Made by a program: the position numbers and the translations under genes. DNA of 64,000 nt, from positions 1-64,000 of the forward strand of contig NZMW01000017.1 in the NCBI GenBank assembly GCA_002694685.1. Reading direction: 5' to 3'. The notes under the pieces were generated by a model. The model made no database searches. It was not told the DNA's origin and saw nothing but the letters and a program-made list of their open reading frames with translations. Shown here one piece after another: positions 47,161 to 54,158 of this stretch. Source of the DNA: Balneola sp. (GTDB taxonomy: Bacteria > Bacteroidota > Rhodothermia > Balneolales > Balneolaceae). The number at the start of each line of letters is the position of its first letter. The stretch's first letter is position 1.

Positions 47161-47285
47161 AATATCATCTACAGACGGCTATTACCCCATTTGCACTATA
47201 AACATACATTTATGTGTGAAATGCGTCAATGGAGGGATATACGTAATTTTTGTACGTGTTTTTACGTAGGGCATTTTTTTAAATA

Positions 47286-47348
47286 CCAAGTCCCAATGAC
47301 CAATGACCAAGTCCCAAATCCCAAATCCCAAATCACAATGACCAATAT
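47286..47348 (+). repeat. Left heptad array (9 units, CCAANNN)
   Basis: Nine contiguous 7-base units: CCAAGTC, CCAATGA twice, CCAAGTC, CCAAATC three times, ACAATGA, CCAATAT. The period is exactly seven throughout. The array faces an inverted array at 47412-47456. Confidence 0.9.
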
Positions 47349-47411
47349 TGTCTGACTTCGCGGTAAATATCGTTTACTTAGGGTTACTTAAGACACTCAG
47401 GATGACAAAGC

Positions 47412-47456
47412 TGGTCATTGGTCATTGGTCATTGGTCATTGGTCATTGGTCATTGG
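47412..47456 (-). repeat. Right heptad array (6.4 units of TGGTCAT)
   Basis: Six perfect tandem copies of TGGTCAT plus a final TGG. The reverse complement reads CCAATGA repeats, so it is an inverted partner of the left array. Perfect copies suggest recent expansion by slippage. Confidence 0.93.
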
Positions 47457-53641: not shown

Positions 53642-53681
53642 GTACGACGGTTGACAATCGACTAATGACCAATGACGATGG
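53642..53681 (+). repeat. Left heptad arm of the four-helix-bundle element
   Basis: Starting with GTAC directly after the sodA stop, this contains 7-base units ending TGA or GA: CGGTTGA, CAATCGA, CTAATGA, CCAATGA. It mirrors the right arm at 54122-54158. Its last bases form part of the sodA terminator stem. Confidence 0.75.
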
Positions 53682-53704
53682 GATAGTTCCATCGTCATTT
53701 CTTT
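53671..53704 (+). terminator. Terminator of sodA
   Basis: AATGACGATGG (53671-53681) pairs perfectly with CCATCGTCATT (53689-53699) around GATAGTT and runs into TTTCTTT. The left half of the stem is continuous with the heptad arm. Confidence 0.88.
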
Positions 53705-53715
53705 ATATAAGTACT

Positions 53716-54135
53716 ATGCCTTTTAAGTTTGAAAAATTAGAGGTTTGGCAGTTGTCAATAGACTTGTCAGCAAAGGTTTATTCTTTGATTGAGAATATGC
53801 CCAAATCGGAGCAATTCAATCTTAGCTCGCAGATCAGGAGAGCTGTAACTTCAATTTCATTGAATATAGCAGAAGGTTCAACGGGACAAAGTGATCCTGA
53901 GCAGACCCGTTTTATTGGGTATGCTCATCGTTCTTTGATGGAAGTTGTTGCTTGTCTCATGCTGATGAAGGATAGAAATTATCTTGATCAGAGTTCTTAT
54001 GATAATCTGTATGCCGATACCGAAAAGCTTTCTGCTAAATTACTTGCTATGAAAAATTATTTAAGAAGAAATAGCAGTGTTAGTGAAGAAGGTGAAAGCT
54101 ATAATTTTGAGGATGAGAGTGACATTGGTCAGTAG
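53716..54135 (+). CDS. Four-helix-bundle protein (23S rRNA IVP/Avd-like)
   Basis: The 139-residue protein has the signature of the four-helix-bundle family: FEKLEVWQLSIDLS at the start, QIRRAVTSISLNIAEGS (about residues 39-55) and FIGYAHRSLMEV. Relatives are encoded in 23S rRNA intervening sequences, or serve as the Avd accessory protein of diversity-generating retroelements. No reverse transcriptase or variable repeat is near. The frame is open to 53665, but MPFKFEKLE is the family start. The C-terminal tail and stop codon run into the right heptad arm, so the coding end and the repeat overlap. Confidence 0.9.
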   Translation: MPFKFEKLEVWQLSIDLSAKVYSLIENMPKSEQFNLSSQIRRAVTSISLNIAEGSTGQSDPEQTRFIGYAHRSLMEVVACLMLMKDRNYLDQSSYDNLYADTEKLSAKLLAMKNYLRRNSSVSEEGESYNFEDESDIGQ

Positions 54136-54158
54136 TCATTGGTCAATTGTCAGAGTAC
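54122..54158 (-). repeat. Right heptad arm of the four-helix-bundle element
   Basis: Units ACATTGG, TCAGTAG, TCATTGG, TCAATTG, TCAGAGT in a 7-base phase, followed by AC, so that GTAC ends the arm (54155-54158). Read in reverse complement they match the left arm (CAATTGA, CCAATGA, CTACTGA). The first units lie inside the end of the CDS. Confidence 0.75.

What the first reader, a model, noticed from the sequence alone, without database searches (positions are those of the whole stretch)
53642..54158. Four-helix-bundle gene enclosed by inverted arms of 7-base repeats
The four-helix-bundle (23S-IVP/Avd-like) gene at 53716-54135 lies between two inverted arms built of 7-base units with the pattern NNNNTGA. 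The left arm reads CGGTTGA, CAATCGA, CTAATGA, CCAATGA. The right arm in reverse complement reads ACTCTGA, CAATTGA, CCAATGA, CTACTGA, CCAATGT. Both outer ends carry GTAC (53642-53645 and 54155-54158). The unit sits exactly between the sodA stop codon and the bacilliredoxin gene, and the CDS end runs into the right arm. Such proteins are known from 23S rRNA intervening sequences and as Avd in retroelements, but here there is no rRNA or reverse transcriptase. The layout suggests a small mobile unit whose ends are heptad arrays, perhaps mobilised by a protein that recognises the repeat.
Basis: partly seen in the sequence, partly recalled or inferred. Interest (0 to 1): 0.72.

Follow-up and report, generated by a model that had tools for sequence, protein, structure and literature searches.

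The report
Gene-in-hairpin elements with 7-base arms
The gene between sodA and the next gene belongs to a very widespread, apparently undescribed family of tiny mobile-looking DNA units, each a single four-helix-bundle protein gene enclosed by two mirror-image arms of imperfect 7- or 8-base repeats, and in this bacterial family about a third of them carry a promoter motif shared with DNA-uptake and single-strand-DNA genes.

Summary
The genome (genus Gracilimonas) has 13 four-helix-bundle (PF05635/TIGR02436) genes. Essentially all sit between inverted arms of degenerate 7/8-base repeats, each subfamily with its own motif (GACNNNN in the window). Over 171 such genes from many phyla, the flanks show periodicity at exactly 7 and 14 bases, and the arms are complementary in register. 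Protein clade and arm motif go together: the window's clade carries GACNNNN arms at two unrelated sites (sodA-bacilliredoxin, ccmB-holB). At the second site relatives show the full unit, an internal-deletion derivative that keeps both arms, a left-arm remnant, and a clean empty site. Gene-less hairpins with the same motifs are scattered in the same genome. In this family 31 of 92 units carry an upstream motif (TGTAAGGA-N15-CTCTTAC; about 0.1 expected) shared with comEC, ssb, recQ, an integron integrase, REP-type transposases and GIY-YIG nucleases. Best reading: compact hairpin elements, built like 23S rRNA intervening sequences and behaving like REP/RAYT systems, probably moving as single-stranded DNA. 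Not shown: movement itself, an enzyme, a target duplication, or arm binding. The window copy is an old resident and lacks the promoter motif.

The parts
53646..53675 (+). left arm: heptads CGGTTGA CAATCGA CTAATGA CCAATGA (phase GACNNNN)
   Evidence: sequence; inverted partner of 54123-54151; GACN4GACN4GAC occurs in 6 of 92 units, five of them the window's own clade
53671..53705 (+). sodA intrinsic terminator (stem AATGACGATGG/CCATCGTCATT, 7-base loop, T-rich tail) overlapping the last left heptad
   Evidence: sequence; equivalent terminator at the gene-less site of relatives
53716..54135 (+). four-helix-bundle (23S_rRNA_IVP / S23-type) protein gene, 139 aa
   Evidence: PF05635 118 bits, TIGR02436 111 bits; solved homologues 2GSC and 2RLD, five chains each; third codon positions vary most in orthologues of the family, i.e. 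purifying selection
54123..54154 (-). right arm, read as reverse complement: ACTCTGA CAATTGA CCAATGA CTACTGA CCAATGT; overlaps the last codons of the CDS
   Evidence: sequence; pairs with the left arm in the predicted RNA fold, z -4.26
47285..47456 (.). gene-less inverted CCAATGA-type arrays: relic or non-autonomous unit of the same motif
   Evidence: tandem repeats, inverted pair score 50, best match among own arms is L014 = the window unit

Best explanation
The unit is one member of a family of compact hairpin elements: a four-helix-bundle gene in the loop of a long imperfect stem whose arms are degenerate 7/8-base repeats. Gene and arms travel together. The gene-encoded protein (homologues crystallise as five chains) most likely binds its own subfamily's phased arm motif when the arms are folded. 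Movement most likely happens when the element is single-stranded and folded back, during DNA uptake or lagging-strand exposure, with nucleases or recombinases supplied in trans. Loss of the gene leaves solo hairpins, which may be mobilised in trans or simply decay. Shown here: the architecture, 7-base phasing, in-register complementarity, clade-motif linkage, dispersal to non-homologous sites, deletion derivatives, an empty site, and sharing of a promoter motif with ComEC, SSB, RecQ, integron integrase and RAYT genes. Inferred: protein-arm binding, ssDNA as the moving form, and the enzyme that cuts and joins.
For: Flank complementarity exceeds mismatched pairs in two sets (median 32 vs 20; 36 vs 18 in 79 named loci) and exceeds other small genes of the same genome (p 2e-5). 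Autocorrelation peaks only at lags 7 and 14 (0.374, 0.349 vs 0.28), and not in the outer flanks. In-register identity is 0.80 vs 0.65 after unit shuffling (86 units); paired arms change motif together. Non-syntenic proteins 60-80% identical share arms far more often (about half of 41 pairs) than background (about 5%). The GACNNNN clade sits at two sites. The ccmB-holB site shows full, internally deleted, left-arm-only and empty states. Solo hairpins match own-genome arms (11 of 15, p 6e-5). The promoter motif is upstream in 31/92 units, 0 antisense, 0 downstream, with a 16-site regulon. The own genome has no reverse transcriptase hit.
Against: No near-identical copies at different sites were found (highest non-syntenic protein identity 76%). 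In one large genus the element stays at one site in 28 of 29 loci. No target duplication or fixed ends are seen. No nuclease or transposase domain is in the gene. The window unit itself lacks the promoter motif, as do all 79 distant named loci. Compensatory change across orthologues is only moderate (87 double changes vs 60 expected, not independent). The regulon is inferred from a motif, not from expression data.
Confidence: 0.6

Rival explanations
1. RNA-level element like a 23S rRNA intervening sequence: the arms pair in the host transcript, RNase III cuts the stem, and the four-helix-bundle mRNA is released; spread is by rare copying of RNA.
For: Same protein family and gene-in-stem body plan as IVS elements, whose termini form a stem cut by RNase III (PMC4990558). 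The whole unit folds with arms paired (z -4.26). One subfamily is almost always in sense inside co-directional operons (65 of 75 named loci), and motif-less units are mostly co-oriented with the upstream gene (39/52).
Against: Many units lie antisense to both neighbours and carry their own promoter motif (16 of 36). No RVT_1 hit in a 99.7% complete genome. Gene-less hairpins occur between convergent genes. Excision is not testable here.
Confidence: 0.2
2. Stable regulatory module, not mobile: the protein binds phased repeats at operon ends and tunes mRNA stability or termination; the distribution reflects old vertical descent plus losses.
For: Purifying selection on the gene (codon-position differences 0.08/0.05/0.25). 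Long residence at one site in a whole genus. Hairpins are depleted between divergent genes and enriched at 3' ends.
Against: Related units sit in unrelated neighbourhoods, including between nrdB and nrdA or cas6 and cas4 on cyanobacterial plasmids. The same collinear site holds different units, in opposite orientation, in different species. Deletion derivatives and an empty site exist.
Confidence: 0.15
3. The arms are unrelated slippage microsatellites that accumulate in any intergenic space, and the association with this gene is coincidence.
For: Perfect one-sided CCAATGA arrays exist without genes. Heptamer arrays are known in several bacteria (PMC4679880).
Against: Control small genes lack the feature. 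The pattern recurs across phyla with different motifs. Arms are mirror images in register and motif follows protein clade.
Confidence: 0.03

Closest known systems
23S rRNA intervening sequences (IVS) with an S23p/IVP ORF (Salmonella, Leptospira, Coxiella)
   Same: Same protein family; a single ORF enclosed by complementary ends that form a stem; similar size (Coxiella IVS 428 nt, PMC4990558).
   Different: Here the units lie in protein operons and intergenic gaps, not in rRNA; arms are phased 7/8-base repeats with subfamily motifs; solo hairpins; many with a promoter motif shared with ssDNA genes.
REP elements with RAYT (REP-associated tyrosine transposase), 'REPtrons'
   Same: One small gene flanked by inverted copies of a repeat, with gene-less copies dispersed in the same genome; in Gracilimonas both kinds carry the same promoter motif.
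   Different: No Y1 transposase domain in the gene; arms are periodic arrays rather than short tagged palindromes.
Diversity-generating retroelement accessory protein Avd
   Same: Same fold superfamily (weak NCBIfam match, 21.8 bits).
   Different: Far below the Avd cut-off (80 bits); no reverse transcriptase found in the genome.
Heptamer repeats: cyanobacterial STRR (from my own knowledge) and Beggiatoaceae TAACTGA repeats (PMC4679880)
   Same: 7-base intergenic tandem repeats. Cyanobacterial plasmid copies found here have GGGAGTA, GGGAACA and GGGTGTA arms around S23 genes.
   Different: No mobile gene was assigned to those repeats in the paper read; here arrays come as inverted arms around a specific gene family.

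Membership tests
PF05635 / TIGR02436 four-helix-bundle (S23/IVP) protein | profile match over the curated cut-off | tested here: met
   118 bits vs 33.8 and 110.9 bits vs 24
23S rRNA intervening sequence (IVS) | located inside an rRNA gene | tested here: not met
   lies between sodA and a bacilliredoxin gene; no Rfam match in 46-56 kb
23S rRNA intervening sequence (IVS) | S23-type ORF between complementary ends able to form a stem | tested here: met
23S rRNA intervening sequence (IVS) | RNase III excision of the stem | not testable with these tools
   needs RNA
Diversity-generating retroelement (Avd) | reverse transcriptase with template/variable repeats and an Avd-grade protein | tested here: not met
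   no RVT_1 in own genome; Avd model 21.8 bits vs cut-off 80
REP/RAYT system | Y1 tyrosine transposase gene flanked by REP palindromes | tested here: not met
   only PF05635 in the protein
REP/RAYT system | body plan: gene between inverted repeats plus dispersed gene-less copies of the same repeat | tested here: met
MITE / insertion sequence | terminal inverted repeats with target-site duplication | tested here: inconclusive
   inverted arms yes; the empty site in G004 shows no duplication, but arms drift and flanks are short

The most novel reading that the evidence does not exclude
A new class of ssDNA hairpin element: S23-type pentamers recognise self-specific phased 7/8-base arms and drive, or protect, the spread of gene-bearing and solo hairpins, in some lineages tied to natural competence. 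23S rRNA intervening sequences and cyanobacterial heptamer repeats would be special cases or relics of it.
Probability: 0.4. Interest if true: 0.93.

Novelty: new variant of a known kind. Interest (0 to 1): 0.8.

Why it matters
Four-helix-bundle genes are extremely common (220 of 296 sampled genomes of the phylum, often 10 or more copies) and have no assigned role. Showing that they sit inside self-specific hairpin arms would turn thousands of 'hypothetical' genes and unexplained heptamer repeats into one element family. It would offer a common origin for rRNA intervening sequences and make protein-repeat recognition and competence-linked movement directly testable. These units also land inside operons (between nrdB and nrdA, or cas6 and cas4), so they can mislead gene-association surveys.

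Tried and rejected
GTAC ends as a target duplication: rejected, the left GTAC belongs to the sodA flank in a gene-less relative. Reverse transcriptase in trans from the same genome: none found. A simple presence/absence reading of collinear sites failed because most relatives carry a different hairpin there rather than an empty site; ccmB-holB gave a clean one. Search for recent transposition in a species-rich genus gave one conserved site instead. Phages: no match. An alignment of all 13 proteins was too divergent for a collection scan, so a four-member subset was used, which biases the named set to one subfamily. Literature searches with repeat strings and family names found no description of the association; the library holds open-licence papers only.

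Full report
WHAT WAS CHECKED. The window lies in a 3.95-Mb genome (G000:C17:1-64000). A congener's contig has the same length (45,812 bp) as a named Gracilimonas contig, so the genus is Gracilimonas. An unbiased inverted-repeat scan recovers the pair. The last left heptad overlaps the sodA terminator hairpin. The predicted RNA of the whole unit folds with the arms paired, z -4.26.

IT IS A FAMILY FEATURE. The genome has 13 such genes. Reading their flanks shows inverted arms of 7- or 8-base units with different motifs: TAGTATT, GAATTCA, TTAAATG, TTCGTTA, AGTGATG and others. For 92 units from Balneolales relatives, the local complementarity of the two flanks has median 32 against 20 for mismatched pairs; 64% exceed the 95th percentile of that null. 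In 79 named loci from many phyla the medians are 36 and 18, and 67% exceed the 95th percentile. Examples come from Planctomycetota, Clostridia, Deltaproteobacteria, Ignavibacteriae, Verrucomicrobia and candidate phyla. Over all 171 units the flank autocorrelation peaks only at 7 (0.374) and 14 (0.349), baseline 0.28, and the outer flanks show nothing. Other small genes of the same genome do not show the feature: Mann-Whitney p about 2e-5 for complementarity and for periodicity, and the only 'control' passing both cut-offs was itself a four-helix-bundle gene. In the phylum, 220 of 296 genomes carry the family, often 10 or more copies.

THE ARMS ARE A STEM AND A SIGNATURE. In register the two arms agree at 0.80 of positions against 0.65 when the 7-base units of one arm are shuffled; 99% of 86 units exceed their shuffles. 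The best register was chosen by maximum in both real and shuffled cases. At one conserved site in another genus, both arms change motif together (CTAAGNTN to CAAAGGTN): own pairs score 40.7 against 28.8 for arms of distant orthologues, though not above close orthologues. Double changes in paired positions are more frequent than independence predicts (87 vs 60, 52 complementary), but the ortholog pairs are not independent. So the stem is maintained, loosely, while the phase is strict.

GENE AND ARMS TRAVEL TOGETHER. Among pairs with non-homologous neighbourhoods, arm sharing rises from about 5% to about half when the proteins are 60-80% identical. The window protein belongs to a clade of six (support 100/100) found at two sites: sodA-bacilliredoxin (G000, G008 and, in another genus, G013) and ccmB-holB (G001, G005, G007). 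The pattern GACN4GACN4GAC occurs in the arms of all five clade members with full flanks and in one of the other 87 units. At ccmB-holB G001, G005 and G007 have the full unit. G000 has both arms with an internal deletion of the gene that leaves its first and last codons. G006 keeps only the left arm, with what looks like a deletion joining the first codons of the lost gene to holB. G004 has a clean empty junction (ccmB stop, six bases, holB start). At sodA the gene is absent in most congeners; G018 keeps both arms without a gene and others keep GACNNNN traces at the terminator. The window copy is therefore an old resident with repeated loss, not a recent arrival.

SITES ARE SHARED BY DIFFERENT UNITS. 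In collinear regions of four congeners, places holding a unit in one species hold a different gene-less hairpin, or a unit of another subfamily in the opposite orientation, in the others. In 924 kb of the own genome, intergenic inverted repeats are enriched between convergent genes (p 0.007) and depleted between divergent genes (p 0.0004). Of 15 gene-less 7/8-periodic hairpins there, 11 match arms of an own-genome unit better than all 40 random sets of distant units (Wilcoxon p 6e-5).

A SHARED PROMOTER MOTIF WITH ssDNA GENES. Reading the upstream regions exposed TGTAAGGA-N15-CTCTTAC. The genome has 16 copies, all with spacing exactly 15 although 14-22 was allowed, and none of the reversed control. 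Downstream lie four of the four-helix-bundle genes, an integron integrase (TIGR02249, 449 bits), SSB, RecQ, ComEC, REP-type tyrosine transposases, three small GIY-YIG-type nucleases and two other genes (the third transposase and two of the three nucleases are judged by sequence resemblance only). In the 92 units the motif (up to 2 mismatches) is upstream and in sense in 31, antisense in 0, downstream in 0, against about 0.001 expected per window. Units with the motif often lie antisense to the host operon, while units without it are mostly co-oriented with the upstream gene (13/36 vs 39/52, p 0.0004, up to 3 mismatches). The window unit has no motif. Calling this a competence regulon is an inference from its gene content.

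MECHANISM. The own genome has no RVT_1 reverse transcriptase and the gene has no catalytic transposase domain. Solved relatives have five chains per entry, in line with the pentamers known for this family (own knowledge). The model that fits best: a protein that binds its own phased arms in folded single strands, with movement during ssDNA exposure and enzymes supplied in trans, and solo hairpins as by-products or passengers. The IVS-like RNA model is the main rival and may hold for the promoter-less, sense-oriented subfamily. Cyanobacterial plasmid copies, between nrdB and nrdA, between cas6 and cas4, and in transfer operons, carry GGGAGTA or GGGAACA arms. One of them (Pseudanabaena) has direct rather than inverted arms, and one (Calothrix PCC 7716) shows no clear arms.

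LIMITS. No recent transposition, fixed ends or target duplication was seen. One genus shows long vertical residence. The named set is biased to one subfamily by the search pattern. Literature coverage is partial.

Noticed in passing
G000:C1:244, C1:704208, C2:82588, C4:657857, C5:61013, C10:441496, C11:156595 and others (L379-L394): A 16-site promoter-like motif TGTAAGGA-N15-CTCTTAC with invariant spacing precedes comEC, ssb, recQ, an integron integrase, REP-type transposases, small GIY-YIG-type nucleases and four-helix-bundle genes: a candidate competence/ssDNA regulon of this family.
   Followed up: partly
L385, L390, L393 (GIY-YIG genes) and L383, L386 (Y1 transposase genes): These small genes are also bracketed by inverted hairpins of other REP-like types (e.g. 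GATCCTGAAACAAGTTCAGGATGAC), so several single-gene hairpin element types seem to share one promoter motif.
   Followed up: partly
window 47285-47456: Gene-less inverted CCAATGA / CCAAATC arrays next to a response-regulator gene.
   Followed up: partly
G000:C4 around 797744 (L039): An array drifts within itself from GACCAAT units to TAACGAA units, a possible snapshot of motif turnover.
   Followed up: no
G000:C17:87800-87884 and collinear sites: Hairpins of 9-base type (GAACGCGGATGACACTGATT; CGCAAAGA/CGCAGAG) occupy the same slots as four-helix-bundle units in sister species.
   Followed up: no
L368 (Pseudanabaena plasmid, cas6-cas4): A unit inside a cas operon; may explain the CRISPR association of '23S rRNA IVP' listed in PMC10910872.
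   Followed up: no
L336-L365: In another genus one unit stays at a single site in 28 of 29 loci with an intact gene under purifying selection, i.e. domesticated or very stable.
   Followed up: partly
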